A stretch of DNA of 26,626 nucleotides from a virus. The stretch spans positions 1 to 26,626 of IMG/VR virus record IMGVR_UViG_3300035188_001367; one strand, given 5' to 3'. The position numbers were made by a program, and so were the translations under genes. Shown here piece after piece: positions 1 to 14,309 of this stretch (position 1 is the stretch's first letter; each line of letters starts with the position of its first letter). The notes beneath the pieces are model-generated. The model had not been told where the DNA came from, made no database searches, and saw only the letters and a program-made list of their open reading frames with translations.

Positions 1-876
1 TTGCAGTCACAGTTTAACTTGACAGTTACTGACACGCTAACAACTCCAGCTGGCACTTATTCAGGTTCTAATGCTTTTGCTGGTGGCGTACTGCTGCCTG
101 ATGGTCGAGTGTTCTGTGTGCCATTCAACAGCACTACAGCAAGGATTTACAATCCAGTTACTAACACGCTAACAACTCCAGCTGGCACTTATTCAGGTTC
201 TAATGCTTTTTTTGGTGGCGTACTGCTGCCTGATGGTCGAGTGTTCTGTGTGCCATTCAGCAGCACTACAGCAAGGATTTACAATCCAGTTACTGACACG
301 CTAACAACTCCAGCTGGCACTTATCCAGGCTCTAATGCTTTTGCTGGTGGCGTACTGCTGCCTGATGGTCGAGTGTTCTGTGTGCCATTCAGCAGCACTA
401 CAGCAAGGATTTACAATCCAGTTACTGACACGCTAACAACTCCAGCTGGCACTTATCCAGGCTCTAATGCTTTTGCTGGTGGCGTACTGCTGCCTGATGG
501 TCGAGTGTTCTGTGTGCCACGCGACAGCACTACAGCAAGGATTTACAATCCAGTTACTGACACGCTAACAACTCCAGCTGGCACTTATTCAGGTTCTAAT
601 GCTTTTTTTGGTGGCGTACTGCTGCCTGATGGTCGAGTGTTCTGTGTGCCACGCAACAGCACTACAGCAAGGATTTACAATCCAGTTACTGACACGCTAA
701 CAACTCCAGCTGGCACTTATCCAGGTTCTAATGCTTTTTTTGGTGGCGTACTGCTGCCTGATGGTCGAGTGTTCTGTGTGCCATTCAGCAGCACTACAGC
801 AAGGATTTACGGCACTGCATTATCGCCACTGCTGCCACTTGATGCTGTGCTTAGCCCCTACCTGAACAAATTTTAA
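1..876 (+). CDS. Kelch-like repeat (beta-propeller) protein, probable phage fibre/receptor-binding protein, 5' partial
   Basis: The reading frame is open from the first base, so the gene probably begins upstream of the window; the TTG at position 1 need not be the start. Residues 7-270 are six tandem 44-residue units, each with the core GGVLLPDGRVFCVP followed by TTARIY, a pattern typical of Kelch/beta-propeller blades. About 21 residues without repeat close the protein. Units differ only at a few fixed positions (S/P before GSNAF, A/F before GG, and FNS/FSS/RDS/RNS after CVP), which would be surface loops in a propeller. Codon use is AT-richer than the head and tail genes downstream, which suggests separate acquisition. 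Propeller repeats are common in phage fibres and adhesins; the fibre role is inferred from the phage context and from the small gene that follows 2 bases later. An unrelated host surface protein remains possible. Confidence 0.7.
   Translation: MQSQFNLTVTDTLTTPAGTYSGSNAFAGGVLLPDGRVFCVPFNSTTARIYNPVTNTLTTPAGTYSGSNAFFGGVLLPDGRVFCVPFSSTTARIYNPVTDTLTTPAGTYPGSNAFAGGVLLPDGRVFCVPFSSTTARIYNPVTDTLTTPAGTYPGSNAFAGGVLLPDGRVFCVPRDSTTARIYNPVTDTLTTPAGTYSGSNAFFGGVLLPDGRVFCVPRNSTTARIYNPVTDTLTTPAGTYPGSNAFFGGVLLPDGRVFCVPFSSTTARIYGTALSPLLPLDAVLSPYLNKF
19..810 (+). repeat. Six tandem 132-bp direct repeats inside the Kelch-like gene
   Basis: Units start at 19, 151, 283, 415, 547 and 679. Each is exactly 132 bp (44 codons). 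They are nearly identical at the DNA level, including third codon positions, so the array was amplified or homogenised recently. Differences sit at four small sites that are reassorted among units. Confidence 0.95.
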
Positions 877-1776: not shown

Positions 1777-2270
1777 ACTGGCTTGATCGACTGCTGGACC
1801 CCCTCCTGGATCGCCTCGTCCTGAAACTGGCAAACAAGGTCCGCCCACAGCTGAACGGGGCGATCGATGCCGCGCTGGATCGGGCGGAAGACCGGATCGA
1901 CACGGCCCTCGAGGGACTGGAGGAGCGGCTGCTGGCGGTGGCCACAAAGCCCATCGAAGACCTGAAAGCGGCGCTGGCGCCGGTCATCACCTTCCAACAA
2001 CAGGTGGTGGATGCCGAAAGGCTCCGGGCTGATGTCTGGTCGCAAGCTGCAGAGATCCAGCAGCAGGCGATGACGACCCTTGCACCGGGGGCTCGATTCC
2101 CGACGCATCAGGAGGTTGAGGAGGCTGCCAAGGCAGCCGGGATGACTCCCGCCGCAGACGTGAGGGCCGCGATCACCTCCGCAGCCTCTTCGGCAAGTGC
2201 TGCCGCGGCGGACCACCTGCGCAGCCGCCTGACACCGCCACGGCCGTGGAAGGAGATCCCTGATCGATGA
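1773..2270 (+). CDS. Hypothetical helical protein
   Basis: A 165-residue protein starting at ATG 1773, in a 4-base ATGA overlap with the preceding gene and ending in an ATGA overlap with the next, so it is translationally coupled on both sides. The first 75 residues are amphipathic and charged (LLDPLLDRLVLKLANKVRP, then repeated DRAEDRIDTALEGLEER), consistent with a coiled coil. The middle continues helical and the C-terminal third is Ala-rich and probably flexible. There is no signal peptide, cysteine cluster or recognisable catalytic motif. Position between small virion-region genes and the large ParB-like protein suggests a phage accessory or virion-associated protein, but no function can be assigned. 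Confidence 0.65.
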   Translation: MNWLDRLLDPLLDRLVLKLANKVRPQLNGAIDAALDRAEDRIDTALEGLEERLLAVATKPIEDLKAALAPVITFQQQVVDAERLRADVWSQAAEIQQQAMTTLAPGARFPTHQEVEEAAKAAGMTPAADVRAAITSAASSASAAAADHLRSRLTPPRPWKEIPDR

Positions 2271-4963
2271 GTCGTCACCAGGCCCTGCAGGATCGCCTCT
2301 CGGCCATCGAGGCCCAGTTGCCTGTATCGACGGCCCGGCAGGCCCTGCCCCGCCGGCCGGCGGCCCTGCGGCATGACGCTGCCGATCGGGTCTCCCCGGT
2401 GCTGCAGCAGCTGCTGGCGGAGGTGCTCCCCGGGGCCCTGGTGCTCGACTGGCGCCAGGACGGTGCGATCCATGCCGGCCGGATGGTCGCCGACGGCCTG
2501 GTCTACCGCTTTCGTGTCGATGCGGAAGGTGTCGGCTACCGGCCCGCCTGGGACGGCATCGGTGAGCGTGGCTGGGAGCTGAGATCGGATTCGTTCCTGC
2601 AGCTGCGGGCTCCTGCCGTGCGGATGGATTTCCGCCGCAGTAACCGGGCCACCGGTCAGAAGCGCAAATGCACCACCGGCTACAGCTGCGGATCGGCCTG
2701 CATCTCCCTGCAGAAGGAGTGCCGGATCAGCCCGGGCAGCGCGATCGGCAAGGCTCGCCTGCGGCGTCTGCAGCAGCTGGCGGCCGCCGGCGACAAGGCC
2801 GCCGTGGCCACCGCCTCTCAGGTGTCGGCCGCCCGGGGAGTGGCTGCAGGAGAGCGGCAACAGGAGCGCACCACCAAACGGGTGGAAAAGCTGCTGGCCC
2901 GGCCCGAGATTGCCGAGTACCTGCGCACCGGCAAGCTCCCCGAGGCCGCCAGCGCTTCCACGGAGCCCGGCACCGTCCGCAACATGAAGCCCGGTGAGAT
3001 CGTCTTCGATCCAGGGCGGTTCCAGTACAAGTTGAACGCCACTGAGGGCACCGGTGAGGTGGGCAGCCTCTCGGGTGTTCGCAAGTGGGATCCAAACCTC
3101 GCCGGCGTGATGAGCGTCTGGAAGGACCCAGCCGACGGCAAGGTCTACGTGGTGAACGGCCACAACCGGATGGCCCTGGCCCGGCGCCTGGGAGCCGAGG
3201 AGGTGACCGTGCGCTTCCTCAACGCAAAAACCGCCACCGAAGCCCGGGCGATCGGCGCCATGCAGAACATTGCCGAGGGTGCCGGCACCCCGATGGATGC
3301 CGCCAAATTTTTCCGCGACACTGGCATCAGGTCCCAGACTGATGTGGAGGCCAAGGGCCTGCCGCTGCGCAGCGGCCAGGCGGAGAAGGGCCTCAAACTC
3401 AGCAAGCTGCCCGGCGAGGTGTTCAACGCCGTGGTGCGCGGTGATCTGAGCGTGAACCGCGGCGCGATCATTGGCGGCAGCGGCCTCGATGAGGCAAAGC
3501 AGCGGGAGGTGTTCAAGATGATCGGCTCCCGCAAGGGCATTGCTGATCAGACGCTGCTCGAGCTGGTGGAACATGCCGCTGCCAGCGAGCAGCGCACCCA
3601 GACCACGATGGACCTCTTCGGGATGAGCCAGGAGGTCAAGGACAACCTCTTCACCCGGGCCAAGCTCTCCGCCGGCCTGAAGGCCAAAATCACGCGGGAG
3701 AAGCGCCTGTTTGGCACCGTCTCCAAGAGCAGAGCAGCCTCCACCCTCGCGGAGAAGGCTGGCAACGTGATCAACCAGCAGCAGAGCGCCAAGGTTGCCG
3801 GCGAGGCCAGCGAGGCCCTGTCGGTGTTCGAGCGTCTGAAAAGCTCCAGCGGGCCCATCAGCTCCGCTCTCAACCGAGCCGCTGATCGAGTGGAAGCGGG
3901 CGAATCTGAAACGAAGGTGCGGCAGGAGCTGGAGCGGGACGTGTTCGCCGCTGTAGAGCAGGAGCTGGAGGCCCTGGGTCTGCGCAAGCGGCCCCGGGCC
4001 GACAGCCTGCAGGAGCGAATCGACGCCCTTCGGCGGAGATGCAGCACGGGCTACAGCTGCGGGGCGACGTGCATCAGCCTCCGGAAGGAGTGCCGCACCA
4101 GCCCGGGCAGCGCCATCGGCAAGGAGCGCCTGAAGCGGCTGCTGGCCGTGGCCGGTGGCGGCGCCTCCTCTCAGCGGGGGATCGCCCCAGTGAAGGCCGA
4201 GGAGGCTGGGAAGATGGCCCAGGCCATCACCGCCGGCCGGGCCCAGCGGGCGGCACAGCTGCGCGGTGCCAGGGCCCAGCAGAAACCGGCTGAGGCCCCC
4301 ACCCTTGATCAGGAGATCAAGAGGCTGGCCAGCGCCCTTGCCACCAGCAAGCAGAGCCAGAGCTCGCTCTTCGGTGCCACCGAATACGACCAGACCATGC
4401 CGCTGTTCCAGCAGCCGGCCGCCGCCGCCGGGCCGCGGCAGACGCCGAAGATCAGCGACGTGCTTCGCGCGACCACCGAGCAACTGAAAGCGGCCGATGC
4501 CCGCCAGATGGGCAAGATCGCCGAGAACCTCTTCGAGGCCGGCTGGACGATCGATCGCCGCACCCGCTACCGGGGCATAAGCAAAGACCAGGCGCGCGAA
4601 CAGTTCAAGGTGGAGTTCATGCAGAAGATGCAACAGCAGGCCGCCTCACCCGAGGCTGCCGCCAACTCCGCTGCCATGCGCCAACGTGCCGGGGCCTCCG
4701 GCAGCGTCGCCGGGGCCATGAAGAGCATCCTCGAGGACATGCAGGCCCAGGACCAGCGATTGGAAGACCTGCAGCGCCAATCCATCGATCTGCGCATCCA
4801 GGCCGAGGAGCAGTTCGGCGCCCTGGGCGGTGAGGATCCAACCCTGGGCGGCGGCCGGCCGCGGCGACGCCTCGGCGGCGGCCGTCGCCGTGATGCCGCT
4901 GCCGACATTCTGGAGGCCCGGATCGATGCCCTCCGGATGCAATGCGCCACCCTGGCCCAATGA
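2267..4963 (+). CDS. Large polyvalent phage protein with DdrB-like ParB domain and two Cys-rich modules
   Basis: An 898-residue protein, coupled to its neighbours by ATGA overlaps at both ends. Residues about 240-355 form a ParB/DdrB-like fold: MKPGEIVFDP at the start, then KVYVVNGHNRMALARRLG around 293-310, equivalent to the conserved DG(H)xRxxA...LG signature. Helical sequence to about 590 follows, as in phage polyvalent proteins with a DdrB-like ParB domain. On each side lies a copy of CxTGYSCGxxCISLxKEC plus SPGSAIGK: Cys135/141/145/152 and Cys592/598/602/609, spaced C-x5-C-x3-C-x6-C. They could bind a metal or form disulfides. The last third is helical and Gln/Ala-rich. Polyvalent proteins are typically injected with phage DNA and protect it or modify the host cell; that role here is inference. 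Its place just before the head genes fits a minor virion protein. Confidence 0.7.
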   Translation: MSRHQALQDRLSAIEAQLPVSTARQALPRRPAALRHDAADRVSPVLQQLLAEVLPGALVLDWRQDGAIHAGRMVADGLVYRFRVDAEGVGYRPAWDGIGERGWELRSDSFLQLRAPAVRMDFRRSNRATGQKRKCTTGYSCGSACISLQKECRISPGSAIGKARLRRLQQLAAAGDKAAVATASQVSAARGVAAGERQQERTTKRVEKLLARPEIAEYLRTGKLPEAASASTEPGTVRNMKPGEIVFDPGRFQYKLNATEGTGEVGSLSGVRKWDPNLAGVMSVWKDPADGKVYVVNGHNRMALARRLGAEEVTVRFLNAKTATEARAIGAMQNIAEGAGTPMDAAKFFRDTGIRSQTDVEAKGLPLRSGQAEKGLKLSKLPGEVFNAVVRGDLSVNRGAIIGGSGLDEAKQREVFKMIGSRKGIADQTLLELVEHAAASEQRTQTTMDLFGMSQEVKDNLFTRAKLSAGLKAKITREKRLFGTVSKSRAASTLAEKAGNVINQQQSAKVAGEASEALSVFERLKSSSGPISSALNRAADRVEAGESETKVRQELERDVFAAVEQELEALGLRKRPRADSLQERIDALRRRCSTGYSCGATCISLRKECRTSPGSAIGKERLKRLLAVAGGGASSQRGIAPVKAEEAGKMAQAITAGRAQRAAQLRGARAQQKPAEAPTLDQEIKRLASALATSKQSQSSLFGATEYDQTMPLFQQPAAAAGPRQTPKISDVLRATTEQLKAADARQMGKIAENLFEAGWTIDRRTRYRGISKDQAREQFKVEFMQKMQQQAASPEAAANSAAMRQRAGASGSVAGAMKSILEDMQAQDQRLEDLQRQSIDLRIQAEEQFGALGGEDPTLGGGRPRRRLGGGRRRDAAADILEARIDALRMQCATLAQ

Positions 4964-11634: not shown

Positions 11635-11662
11635 TCACCAGGCCGCGGCCGCCAGAGCAAAG

Positions 11663-11688
11663 AGAGGGGCCCGGCGGGGCCCTTTTTT
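11663..11688 (+). terminator. Rho-independent terminator after the tail tube gene
   Basis: Stem GGGCCC (11667-11672), loop GGCG, stem GGGCCC (11677-11682), then six T (11683-11688); A/G bases before the stem can pair with the Ts and lengthen it. Terminating between tail tube and tail chaperone is unusual for a late operon, and fits an accessory region inserted here. The transposon landed in its T-tract. Confidence 0.85.
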
Positions 11689-11691
11689 ATT
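11684..11691. repeat. Left 8-bp target site duplication
   Basis: TTTTTATT lies directly outside the left inverted repeat and is repeated exactly outside the right one (14302-14309). Confidence 0.95.
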
Positions 11692-11715
11692 GGGCATTAT
11701 GTACTTGACAAACAC
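11692..11715 (+). repeat. Left terminal inverted repeat
   Basis: 24 bp matching the right end with a single C/T mismatch at position 4. It contains ACTTGACAAACAC, so both element ends carry an inward-facing TTGACA. Confidence 0.95.
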
Positions 11716-11730
11716 AGGCGATTGGCGGCT

Positions 11731-11916
11731 TCAGCGCCCTGCTCCTTCGGCTGGGGAGCGCTTATCATTGTCTTCTTTAATTTGATCATCTTTCGATACT
11801 ATAGCCTTTAAGGAAGCAATAAAAAGCTCAGGGCTATCCATTCCCCCGGCAATCTTTGCCGCTTCACGAAAACGGTCTGATTGAGCTTGGGTCACCTTTG
11901 GATCTTCCTTATTCAT
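11731..11916 (-). CDS. Small transposon cargo protein
   Basis: A 61-residue protein, last of the cargo genes, starting in an ATGA overlap with the PIN gene stop (11913-11916). The sequence DPKVTQAQSDRFREAAKIAG followed by SPELFIASLKAIV gives two helices, and the C-terminus is highly charged. It resembles a class of small uncharacterised bacterial proteins that I cannot name with a function. Overlap with the PIN gene suggests coordinated synthesis, and a small acidic/basic helical protein next to a PIN nuclease could be an antitoxin-like partner; that is speculation. The stop lies only 15 bases from the left inverted repeat. Confidence 0.65.
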   Translation of the reverse strand: MNKEDPKVTQAQSDRFREAAKIAGGMDSPELFIASLKAIVSKDDQIKEDNDKRSPAEGAGR

Positions 11917-12506
11917 AGGAATAACAATGGATTAGGGTGTGCTGGCGTAACACGCTTGAGACCAATAGCCTTACCCACTAATTCTTTCTGCTCATTGGTT
12001 ACCCTACCCAGGCTTCCACACCATTCCTCATAGCCCAGCAAAGGCACCGTTCTTCGCCCCTCGCTTCTGCTTTTCCCTTTGTCATAAGTGTGGAACTCAG
12101 TGAGCTTTTCACCAGTGCCTTCAACGTAAATTGCTGTTGCCAACATAATGGCATCGACAGTACCCAATGGTCGTTCTCCTGGTTTTCTCTCCGATCCATT
12201 CTTTACATATTTCACTGATCGGAGGAGCGCGGCAATTCTCATGATTATGTCATTGGGCGAAACACACACAACACTGCCTTCTATAGCTGCGAAAACCTGT
12301 GAGATATTCTTCCTTTCGCCCTTCTTCTCAATATTTCCGGCCACCTCTGCATATATGAGAGTAGAGGAGTATATAGTTATTAGTCCGCTTTTTGCCTCTT
12401 CTAGAAATTGCCCAATGCTTTCCAAGTTACCGTTATCCCTGGCCTCATTGTGAAGCCAAGCAAGAAAAATGCACGAGTCCCAAAAATACGAGGTGTTCTT
12501 ACTCAT
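11913..12506 (-). CDS. PIN-domain nuclease, transposon cargo
   Basis: A 197-residue protein, taking ATG 12506 as start because it overlaps the upstream stop (ATGAGTAA), the usual coupled arrangement; in-frame starts further upstream would extend it by 14 residues. The four acidic residues of a PIN active site are all present: Asp10 in FWDSCIF, Glu54 in IYAEVAG, Asp118 in GTVDAIMLATAI, and Asp142 in FHTYDKG. The DAxxLATA and TxD motifs are typical. PIN proteins are metal-dependent RNases, most often toxins of toxin-antitoxin pairs such as VapC, and sometimes RNA-processing or defence nucleases. At 197 residues it is longer than most VapC toxins (about 130), with an extra C-terminal segment of about 45 residues. 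Both genes beside it are cargo of the same element. Confidence 0.8.
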   Translation of the reverse strand: MSKNTSYFWDSCIFLAWLHNEARDNGNLESIGQFLEEAKSGLITIYSSTLIYAEVAGNIEKKGERKNISQVFAAIEGSVVCVSPNDIIMRIAALLRSVKYVKNGSERKPGERPLGTVDAIMLATAIYVEGTGEKLTEFHTYDKGKSRSEGRRTVPLLGYEEWCGSLGRVTNEQKELVGKAIGLKRVTPAHPNPLLFL

Positions 12507-13326
12507 TATCATCCCATACGCTCTTGTCTGGGACTCCAGAGAAAACACCTCGCCAATTAACTAAATCTCCTGTGAGTGGTATCAGGCTGAGCTTATCGAG
12601 CTCAATGCGAGTGGGCAGAAGATTTGTGCCATCGTAAAAACAGGTTCCGTAAGCTCTAACTCTCTCGCCAAACTTGGAACGATGTTTCGCAAGATCAGCA
12701 CGCTTGATAATACATTCAATTATTGCAGAGCCTGGACCGACAGAAAGCCCTCCAACGATATAACTTCCTTGTTCTGGATCATCAAGGAGCTTAAGCCTCC
12801 CAACAAAGTCGCCGATAGATTTGCCCTTGAAATAAGCAAGAGTTTGATCTTCGGGAGATTTGGCTTCGGCCAATAAACGCTTGGCTTGCCTATAAAGATA
12901 GCCATCGATGAGCAAAGGATCGTCGTCTCCGCACTTAAGCTCGCCCTTGGCAAAATCATCGCCACATCCATCGGCAAGGTCTCTAACAGTTGCTGCCAAA
13001 GCAAGGTCGTCTTGATTGGCAATGCCATCGTGAATCCGATGTATCCCATGCCGGAACGTTCGTATGCTTCGCTTTACAGGGCCGTCATTGCGGCGATGCC
13101 TGCCAATCTCCCGCTCCTCAATAGTTACTTTTGCGCTGCTTTTTTCTAAGTTAGAGATTAGGAAATCATGCCTGACCCTTCCATTGGCGTGAGTGTCAGC
13201 GACTTTCAACGCCTTAAGTAGTATCTGGAACTTTTTGGAAAATACGTCGGCCCTGACCTTCCGGTTGTCACCTTCTAGTCCGTATATTGTGAAAACAAGT
13301 TTTTCAGTGTTTTCAATCTGTTCCAC
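12499..13326 (-). CDS. Unknown transposon cargo protein, 275 residues
   Basis: Starts at GTG (13324-13326). An AAGGAGG sequence lies about 12 bases upstream (13339-13345 on + coordinates), a longer spacing than usual. The gene follows the transposase after 36 bases and overlaps the PIN gene by 8 bases. I do not recognise a family. The N-terminus (LVFTIYGLEGDNRKVRADVF) looks like a small beta-rich domain followed by a helix (KKFQILLKALKVAD) and SSAKVTIEEREI. A basic patch GRHRRNDGPVKRSIRTFRHG at about 77-96 could bind nucleic acid. The C-terminal half has LAYFKGKSIGDFVGRLKLL and a mixed alpha/beta end. Being coupled to a PIN nuclease suggests a partner or regulator, for example an antitoxin or sensor, but that is inference. 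Confidence 0.65.
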   Translation of the reverse strand: MEQIENTEKLVFTIYGLEGDNRKVRADVFSKKFQILLKALKVADTHANGRVRHDFLISNLEKSSAKVTIEEREIGRHRRNDGPVKRSIRTFRHGIHRIHDGIANQDDLALAATVRDLADGCGDDFAKGELKCGDDDPLLIDGYLYRQAKRLLAEAKSPEDQTLAYFKGKSIGDFVGRLKLLDDPEQGSYIVGGLSVGPGSAIIECIIKRADLAKHRSKFGERVRAYGTCFYDGTNLLPTRIELDKLSLIPLTGDLVNWRGVFSGVPDKSVWDDNE

Positions 13327-13362
13327 TTTCCAATCATGCCTCCTTATTAGTTGATTTATATG

Positions 13363-14241
13363 TTAGGCGCTTGCCAGCCATACCGCGCAACGCGGCGTGC
13401 TCCGCTCATGGTCTGTAATGCCAAGCTTGGCTCGCTGGTTGTACCTAAAGTCAAACTCTGCAACATACCGATGCAAGTGCTTCTCGGCACAATGCTGGTA
13501 GACGCCTTTCATGCCCCGCTTGAACACGCTGTAGAAGCCCTCGACAGTGTTGGTGTGGACCTTGCCACGCCCCCACTCATACTGGCTGTGACTGACGTAA
13601 CCATGGCCGGCGAAGTGCATGCCTAGGCTCTTGTACTGCCCAGCCTCGTCGGTCATGACCTCAGTGCTGGGATGCACGTTCGCCTGGATGATGGGAAGCA
13701 GATCAGCCGCCTTGGTCCCGTCAACATGGAAGGACCGGGCGGACCCCCCGCGCTGAACAAGGGTTAGAACAGCATTTTTGTGCGAGTAGCCACGCTTTGG
13801 CTTGTGACCAATCTTGCGACCAATGAAAGTTTCGTCTATTTCAACGACAGCACCCTCCCCTCCAATGGGCGGCAGGGTGCCGCCTTTCATTGCCTCCCGA
13901 ACGCGATGAGTCATGAACCACGCCGTCTTGTATTGAACTCCGAGTACGCGCATAAGTTGGTGGCTGCTGATTCCCTTCTTACTGCAACACATTAAATAGA
14001 TTGCTTGAAGCCAGAGATTAAGTGGAACATGGCTGCTCTCAAAGAGTGTTCCCACCTTCACAGTAAATTGACGCTTGCACGGTCCACAGCGCCATAGACC
14101 CTTTCGCCCACCCTTGACGGGCGTAATGCGCCCCTTGCCGCTGCAGCGTGGGCAGACAGGGCCGTTGGGCCAAAGAACGCGCTCAAGCTCCGCAAACGCA
14201 GCCGCTTCGTCGTGGAAATATGGTGCGGAAAGAATGGACAT
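13363..14241 (-). CDS. IS1595-family (ISXO2-like) transposase
   Basis: A 292-residue protein reading leftward from ATG 14239-14241, with GAGGAG six bases upstream. Residues 30-55 form a zinc ribbon (Cys30, Cys33, Cys52, Cys55: CPRC and CGPC). The catalytic core follows: Asp136 in VEIDETFIG, Asp198 in MTDEAGQY, and Asn231 in NTVEGFYSVFKRG with Lys241. A DDN(K) set in place of DDE is described for several IS1595 subgroups. The Tyr/Phe-rich end (YVAEFDFRYNQR) is also typical. Length is normal for the family and no frameshift is seen, so it is likely active. It cuts and pastes or copies the element between 8-bp target duplications. Confidence 0.93.
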   Translation of the reverse strand: MSILSAPYFHDEAAAFAELERVLWPNGPVCPRCSGKGRITPVKGGRKGLWRCGPCKRQFTVKVGTLFESSHVPLNLWLQAIYLMCCSKKGISSHQLMRVLGVQYKTAWFMTHRVREAMKGGTLPPIGGEGAVVEIDETFIGRKIGHKPKRGYSHKNAVLTLVQRGGSARSFHVDGTKAADLLPIIQANVHPSTEVMTDEAGQYKSLGMHFAGHGYVSHSQYEWGRGKVHTNTVEGFYSVFKRGMKGVYQHCAEKHLHRYVAEFDFRYNQRAKLGITDHERSTPRCAVWLASA

Positions 14242-14247
14242 GGCTTT

Positions 14248-14288
14248 CTCCTCGCCTTCAACCTAGTAAGTCACGGCGTGTTTGTCAA
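14248..14288 (-). promoter_or_regulatory. Transposase promoter and ribosome-binding site
   Basis: On the reverse strand, TTGACA (14283-14288) lies inside the right inverted repeat and is followed after 17 bases by TAGGTT (14260-14265), then GAGGAG (14248-14253). The -35 is perfect and the -10 weak. A promoter overlapping the transposase-binding end would be self-limiting, since bound transposase would block it. Confidence 0.5.
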
Positions 14289-14301
14289 GTACATAATACC
14301 C
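14278..14301 (-). repeat. Right terminal inverted repeat
   Basis: The 24-bp reverse complement of the left end, with one mismatch, ending in CCC at 14301, directly before the target duplication. Confidence 0.95.
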
Positions 14302-14309
14302 TTTTTATT
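14302..14309. repeat. Right 8-bp target site duplication
   Basis: TTTTTATT, identical to 11684-11691. It contains the stop codon (14305-14307 on +) of the reverse-strand gene that follows, so the duplication preserved that gene's end. Confidence 0.95.

What the first reader, a model, noticed from the sequence alone, without database searches (positions are those of the whole stretch)
11692..14301. IS1595-family transposon carrying a three-gene PIN-nuclease cargo
The element is intact (inverted repeats, perfect 8-bp target duplication, complete DDN(K) transposase) and carries an unknown 275-residue protein, a 197-residue PIN nuclease with all four acidic residues, and a 61-residue protein, each overlapping the next. 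All genes read in one direction behind the transposase, so they may be co-transcribed. IS1595 passengers are known in general, but I do not know this trio. An RNase with a partner could act as an addiction module that keeps the element, or as anti-phage defence hitch-hiking in a phage late operon. Low GC of the cargo shows a separate history from the phage.
Basis: partly seen in the sequence, partly recalled or inferred. Interest (0 to 1): 0.78.

Follow-up and report, generated by a model that had tools for sequence, protein, structure and literature searches.

The report
Swappable-cargo jumping gene carrying PIN nuclease
A complete bacterial jumping gene has landed in a cyanophage genome; it belongs to a little-described lineage that keeps its transposase and one tiny unknown protein but swaps its cargo, and here the cargo is a two-gene module (a PIN nuclease and a nucleic-acid-binding-type partner) that looks like a phage-defence or toxin-antitoxin system.

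Summary
Window 11692-14301 is an intact IS1595-family transposon (24-bp ends, 8-bp duplication, zinc-ribbon DDN(K) transposase); a related phage contig has the empty site. The phage resembles cyanophage S-CBS4.
The 'trio' must be re-cut. (i) The 275-residue protein (A) and the PIN nuclease form a two-gene module that recurs with and without IS1595: 13 A loci in 385 Alphaproteobacteria, 7 beside an IS1595 transposase, plus one pair beside a Pseudomonas phage repressor. A has a C-terminal PriB/SSB-like OB fold; the PIN acids are conserved. (ii) The 61-residue protein (C) is not a PIN partner but a core gene of the transposon lineage: 52 of 54 complete elements have it whatever their cargo, and it tracks the transposase. 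The cargo slot is exchanged repeatedly and holds DUF3800, Panacea, NYN, AlbA, methylase and known anti-phage genes (PD-Lambda-5, BstA).
Best reading: a small cargo transposon, often inserted at AT-rich or terminator sites, carrying an OB-partnered PIN RNase that acts as defence or TA-like stabiliser. Anatomy is shown; function is inferred. A and C match no Pfam family. Toxicity, antitoxin identity and phage resistance need experiments.

The parts
11692..14301 (-). complete IS1595-family cargo transposon, 2610 bp
   Evidence: ends, duplication and transposase; empty site in L117
11692..11715 (.). terminal inverted repeat beside gene C, GGGCATTATGTACTTGACAAACAC
   Evidence: same kind of end in relatives
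14278..14301 (.). terminal inverted repeat beside the transposase gene, 23/24 identical to the other
11684..11691 (.). target duplication TTTTTATT, left copy
14302..14309 (.). target duplication TTTTTATT, right copy
11661..11688 (+). intrinsic terminator of the phage gene upstream; its T-tract is the insertion target
   Evidence: RNA fold -20.4 kcal/mol, z -3.7, no shuffle as good
13363..14241 (-). IS1595 transposase, 292 aa, zinc ribbon plus DDN(K) catalytic domain
   Evidence: PF12760, PF12762, NF033547
12499..13326 (-). protein A, 275 aa: unassigned N-terminal domain (about 8-165) plus OB fold (168-253); GTG start
   Evidence: no Pfam or NCBIfam hit; AF2 pLDDT 83; PriB/SSB matches Z 8.7-9.1
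11913..12506 (-). PIN-domain nuclease, 197 aa; acids D10, E54, D118, D142
   Evidence: PF01850; in 18 homologues D10, E54, D118 invariant, D142 nearly so
11731..11916 (-). protein C, 61 aa: conserved accessory protein of this IS1595 lineage (RFxEAARELGxDEDE motif)
   Evidence: 52/54 complete elements; no Pfam/NCBIfam family

Best explanation
This is a cargo transposon of one IS1595 lineage. Its fixed core is two 24-bp ends, a DDN(K) transposase and the small helical protein C. Between or beside these genes is a slot whose content is exchanged between elements. In this copy the slot holds a two-gene module: A, with an N-terminal domain and a PriB/SSB-like OB fold, and an active-looking PIN ribonuclease translated from an overlapping frame. 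Most likely way of working (inferred): A binds single-stranded nucleic acid through its OB domain and both restrains and directs the PIN nuclease; phage infection, or loss of A, frees PIN to cut RNA and stops growth, so that the host population is defended or the DNA carrying the element is kept. C probably serves the transposon itself (transposition, its regulation or target choice) and not the PIN nuclease. Shown: element anatomy, empty site, A-PIN pairing and co-evolution, conserved PIN acids, C tracking the transposase, cargo exchange. Inferred: nucleic-acid binding by A, RNase activity, toxicity and neutralisation, defence, the role of C.
For: Element. A-PIN as a unit: A then PIN in 10 elements; PIN next to A in 11 of 12 genome loci with room; mirror-tree r 0.69, p<=5e-4, against -0.15 for transposase-PIN and 0.13 for transposase-A. 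Independent of IS1595: 6 of 13 genome loci without a transposase nearby; A-PIN next to the repressor gene of Pseudomonas phage vB_PaeS_AV001, confirmed by profile. A: OB fold; structural similarity over most of its length to phage proteins, one annotated DUF6575 (Foldseek E 7e-8), a domain found in a tested anti-phage system (PMC9519451). PIN: acids conserved at about 20-45% identity; VapC is the nearest solved sequence. C with the core: 52/54 complete elements; 8 of 9 C genes in 190 Alphaproteobacteria and 14 of 17 in 398 Pseudomonadota genomes lie near an IS1595 transposase; r 0.30, p 5e-4, n 69. Cargo exchange: A-PIN needs 8 changes on the transposase tree, at least 6 forced by starred branches. 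Cargo type: 16 DUF3800, 4 Panacea, PIN, NYN, AlbA, methylase; PADLOC PD-Lambda-5 A+B and BstA, placed in L048 and L063. Local profiles of six cargo families: 43 hits in 102 kb of cargo against 1 in 498 kb of flanks.
Against: No function was measured. No PADLOC model matches the A-PIN pair. A is far larger than a usual VapB antitoxin, so neutralisation by A is a guess. The OB fold alone does not prove nucleic-acid binding, and its best Z (about 9) is only slightly above background for a common fold. PIN is broken in two stand-alone copies (L103, L104), so it can be lost. The local cargo profiles were built from cargo inside these elements, which favours the inside count.
Confidence: 0.6

Rival explanations
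1. A-PIN is a plain toxin-antitoxin addiction module (A the antitoxin, PIN the toxin) that only keeps the transposon or its replicon in the population, with no role against phages.
For: Antitoxin-like gene order with overlap; PIN resembles VapC by profile; TA-type cargo in sister elements: Panacea, DUF433 plus DUF5615 PIN; two stand-alone loci kept A but broke PIN.
Against: Sister cargos include systems tested as anti-phage (PD-Lambda-5, BstA models); the pair lies next to a phage repressor, a usual place for superinfection defence; A is 250-290 aa with an OB fold, unlike VapB.
Confidence: 0.27
2. PIN and C are a toxin-antitoxin pair, A being unrelated to both.
For: PIN and C genes overlap by 4 bp in the window.
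Against: C occurs in 52 of 54 elements, most without this PIN; PIN-C distance correlation 0.14, not significant; A-PIN loci without C exist.
Confidence: 0.04
3. A-PIN is an RNA-processing or counter-defence pair used by the phage or element during replication, not a growth-arrest system.
For: The element sits in a phage here and related elements lie in other viral contigs.
Against: Most copies found are in bacterial genomes and plasmids; the genes are antisense to the phage late genes and behind a terminator; closest phage relatives lack the element.
Confidence: 0.07
4. C is the regulator of whatever cargo is present, for example a general silencer or antitoxin, not a transposition factor (a rival for C only).
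For: C lies downstream of or beside very different cargos.
Against: C tracks the transposase, not PIN; some loci have C directly behind the transposase with other genes after it (L056, L058, L059, L067).
Confidence: 0.2

Closest known systems
IS1595 family of insertion sequences (Zn_ribbon_IS1595 plus DDE_Tnp_IS1595)
   Same: Transposase domains, inverted ends, 8-bp duplications (PMC8101967).
   Different: Family members are described as usually having a single transposase gene (PMC8101967). Here all 54 complete relatives are 1.9-4.0 kb with extra genes and 52 have the same small protein C.
VapBC (PIN) type II toxin-antitoxin systems
   Same: PIN nuclease with the usual acids, gene order partner-then-PIN with overlap.
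   Different: The partner is a 250-290 aa OB-fold protein and not a small DNA-binding VapB.
DUF6575 proteins of phages and of a tested E. coli anti-phage system (PMC9519451)
   Same: Fold similarity to A over most of its length (Foldseek E 7e-8).
   Different: Low TM-score (0.36 of A), no Pfam match of any A member; domain arrangement differs or is not comparable.
PriB / single-stranded-DNA-binding proteins
   Same: OB fold of residues 168-253 of A (Z 8.7-9.1, 76-84 residues).
   Different: A has another 165-residue domain, and no role in replication is suggested.
Mobile defence carriers in general (prophage hotspots, defence islands)
   Same: Exchangeable cargo with nuclease, TA and anti-phage genes.
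   Different: Much smaller (2-4 kb) and moved by an IS1595 transposase.

Membership tests
IS1595 family | Zinc ribbon plus DDE_Tnp_IS1595 domain | tested here: met
   PF12760, PF12762 and NF033547 all above cut-off
IS1595 family | Terminal inverted repeats and 8-bp target duplication | tested here: met
   23/24 repeats, TTTTTATT twice; empty site L117
IS1595 family | Subgroup (ISPna2, ISNwi1, ISNha5 ...) | not testable with these tools
   no ISfinder library; from memory the N...K motif points to ISPna2-like, a lead only
VapBC toxin-antitoxin | PIN nuclease with four acidic residues | tested here: met
   alignment
VapBC toxin-antitoxin | Adjacent small VapB-type antitoxin | tested here: not met
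   neighbours are A (275 aa, OB fold) and C, which is not PIN-specific; neither matches an antitoxin family
VapBC toxin-antitoxin | Toxicity of PIN and neutralisation by its partner | not testable with these tools
   needs expression experiments
Known anti-phage systems (PADLOC) | Match of A, PIN or C to a defence model | tested here: not met
   nothing better than E about 0.01
DUF6575 | Match to the Pfam profile | tested here: not met
   22 A members scanned against Pfam, DUF6575 not listed at E up to 0.05
DUF6575 | Shared fold | tested here: inconclusive
   Foldseek E 7e-8 but TM 0.36 and rmsd 12

The most novel reading that the evidence does not exclude
A lineage of IS1595 transposons is a compact defence-carrying transposon class: a minimal core (ends, transposase, the small protein C) with one slot in which anti-phage and toxin-antitoxin modules are captured and swapped, moving between chromosomes, plasmids and phages. 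A-PIN is a new anti-phage system carried in that slot, and C is a new accessory factor of transposition.
Probability: 0.4. Interest if true: 0.8.

Novelty: new variant of a known kind. Interest (0 to 1): 0.62.

Why it matters
IS elements are usually seen as transposase-only. If this lineage regularly carries and swaps nuclease, TA and anti-phage genes behind a constant small partner protein, it is a very small vehicle for spreading immunity, and it offers a simple way to find new defence systems: read the slot. It also gives one undescribed pair (A-PIN) and one undescribed transposon protein (C) that can be tested directly.

Tried and rejected
The single-protein searches of viral contigs with A and PIN, a two-row PIN alignment in viral contigs, and a two-row A alignment in genome contigs found no relative; the transposase alignment was the productive query. 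Minus-strand 260-290 aa ORFs behind many transposases were first suspected to be antisense artefacts; Pfam shows that the representatives tested are DUF3800 genes. A first seed for protein C picked a wrong 61-aa ORF (famC); redone. The PADLOC BstA match was first expected in L034 (KilA-N); it lies in L063. Sequence search of solved structures gave nothing for A and only a VapC for the PIN profile. The AF2 model of C is too weak (pLDDT 65, pTM 0.30) to search with. Literature searches for IS1595 together with passenger genes, DUF3800, toxin-antitoxin or defence found no description of this lineage; subscription papers on IS1595 are not in the library, so absence is weak evidence. PIN2 of L041/L061/L017 was not shown to be a relative of this PIN (hhalign probability 3.8), though their first gene shares the OB part of A (E 6e-6).

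Full report
What is there. Window 11692-14301 is bounded by 24-bp inverted repeats and a perfect 8-bp duplication TTTTTATT. On the minus strand it encodes an IS1595 transposase (PF12760, PF12762, NF033547), a 275-aa protein A without Pfam or NCBIfam match, a 197-aa PIN protein (PF01850 above cut-off) and a 61-aa protein C. A and PIN overlap by 8 bp, PIN and C by 4 bp. The surrounding phage has a capsid protein 45% identical to that of Synechococcus phage S-CBS4, and its tail-region protein matches only that phage among named records. Close viral contigs (up to 100% identity in that protein) lack the element; L117 shows the uninterrupted site. The target is the T-tract of an intrinsic terminator (-20.4 kcal/mol, z -3.7), and the element's genes point against the phage late genes.

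The lineage. A scan of bacterial genomes with the transposase found 501 relatives; the best 80 loci, 5 plasmid loci and the window were analysed. In 54 of these 86, both ends and the duplication could be found. All 54 are 1869-4018 bp, median 2800, so none is a bare IS. The same four-gene element with its own duplication (TATCTTTA) interrupts another transposase gene on a Roseomonas marmotae plasmid.

C belongs to the core. A profile of C finds it inside 52 of the 54 complete elements whatever the cargo, always in the direction of the transposase. In a sample of 190 Alphaproteobacteria genomes that was not chosen for the element, 8 of 9 C genes lie 0.1-1.5 kb from an IS1595 transposase on the same strand. 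In 398 Pseudomonadota genomes 14 of 17 lie within about 4 kb of one, 13 on the same strand, and the three exceptions are the weakest matches. The two samples share a few genomes, and each includes the genome used as their centre, which was picked because it holds an element. C distances follow transposase distances (r 0.30, p 5e-4, n 69) and not PIN distances (r 0.14, not significant; in the ten A-PIN elements alone the C-transposase correlation is also not significant). C has no Pfam or NCBIfam family; AF2 suggests two helices with low confidence.

The slot is exchangeable. On the transposase tree A-PIN needs 8 changes, at least 6 of them forced by starred branches, and the four named cargo types need 15. 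Cargo found: 16 DUF3800 and 4 SocA_Panacea proteins, plus PIN, DUF433 with DUF5615/PIN_10, NYN, Schlafen-AlbA, KilA-N, DUF5343, Cas2-like and adenine methylase genes. PADLOC adds PD-Lambda-5 A and B (L048, location of A confirmed) and BstA (L063, location confirmed). PD-Lambda-5 is an experimentally tested system described as a compacted RM+Abi system (PMC9519451). Profiles of six cargo families hit 43 times in 102 kb of cargo and once in 498 kb of flanks; the profiles were built from cargo, so this shows concentration of those families and is not an unbiased enrichment test. Many elements also hold genes with no known family.

The A-PIN module. A-type proteins were found in 10 of the 86 loci and in 12 of 385 Alphaproteobacteria (13 loci). 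PIN follows directly in 11 of the 12 genome loci with room. Seven of the 13 have an IS1595 transposase or remnant nearby and six do not, within flanks of 1.5 to 6 kb. In one locus (L107) the transposase is followed by a methylase-like gene, then A-PIN-C (the methylase was identified by eye only). A-PIN-C is also in viral contig L184. In Pseudomonas phage vB_PaeS_AV001 an A-PIN pair (profile E 6e-36 and 7e-25) lies directly behind the annotated repressor. A and PIN distances correlate strongly (r 0.69); transposase-A and transposase-PIN do not. In 18 PIN homologues D10, E54 and D118 are invariant and D142 nearly so.

Structure of A. AF2 with 20 homologues gives pLDDT 83, pTM 0.59. Residues 168-253 form an OB fold closest to SSB and PriB (Z 8.7-9.1, rmsd 3.0-3.8 over 76-84 residues). 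Among viral models three match over nearly the whole length with E below 1e-6, one annotated DUF6575, but with TM about 0.4 and rmsd 12, so the two domains are probably shared in a different arrangement. DUF6575 occurs in a tested anti-phage system. None of 22 A proteins matches a Pfam family convincingly.

Target choice. 31 of 54 duplications have at least 6 A/T in 8, against 7% of flank positions (binomial p about 1e-21), and 10 of 54 sites look like intrinsic terminators (dG <= -8) against 2.3% (p about 4e-7). The window insertion is one of them.

Interpretation. The anatomy, the empty site, the C-transposase link, the A-PIN link and the cargo exchange are shown. That A binds and controls PIN, that PIN cuts RNA, that the pair defends or stabilises, and what C does, are inferences; see rivals and next steps.

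Noticed in passing
TSDs of 54 elements (L002-L087 and window 11684-11691): The lineage inserts preferentially into A/T runs in GC-rich hosts, about a fifth of them in intrinsic-terminator-like T-tracts.
   Followed up: partly
L048:5923-9522: A complete IS1595 element carrying both genes of the anti-phage system PD-Lambda-5.
   Followed up: partly
L063:5939-9906: A complete element with DUF3800, C and a BstA-like protein.
   Followed up: partly
L107:3574-7959: IS1595 transposase, a methylase-like gene, A, PIN and C in a row: stacked cargo.
   Followed up: partly
L082:8176-8616: Protein C carries an extra domain of about 100 residues at its C-terminus.
   Followed up: no
L103 and L104: Stand-alone A-PIN loci in which PIN is split by a stop or frameshift while A is open.
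   Followed up: no
window 1-876: Near-identical tandem repeats of about 42 residues (NPVTDTLTTPAGTYPGSNAFAGGVLLPDGRVFCVP) at the start of the phage contig.
   Followed up: no
window 2267-4963: A Cys-rich motif CxTGYSCGxxCISLxKECRxSPGSAIGKxRLxRL occurs twice in one phage protein.
   Followed up: no
L017, L041, L061: Another OB-type first gene with a different, unassigned second gene in the same slot.
   Followed up: partly
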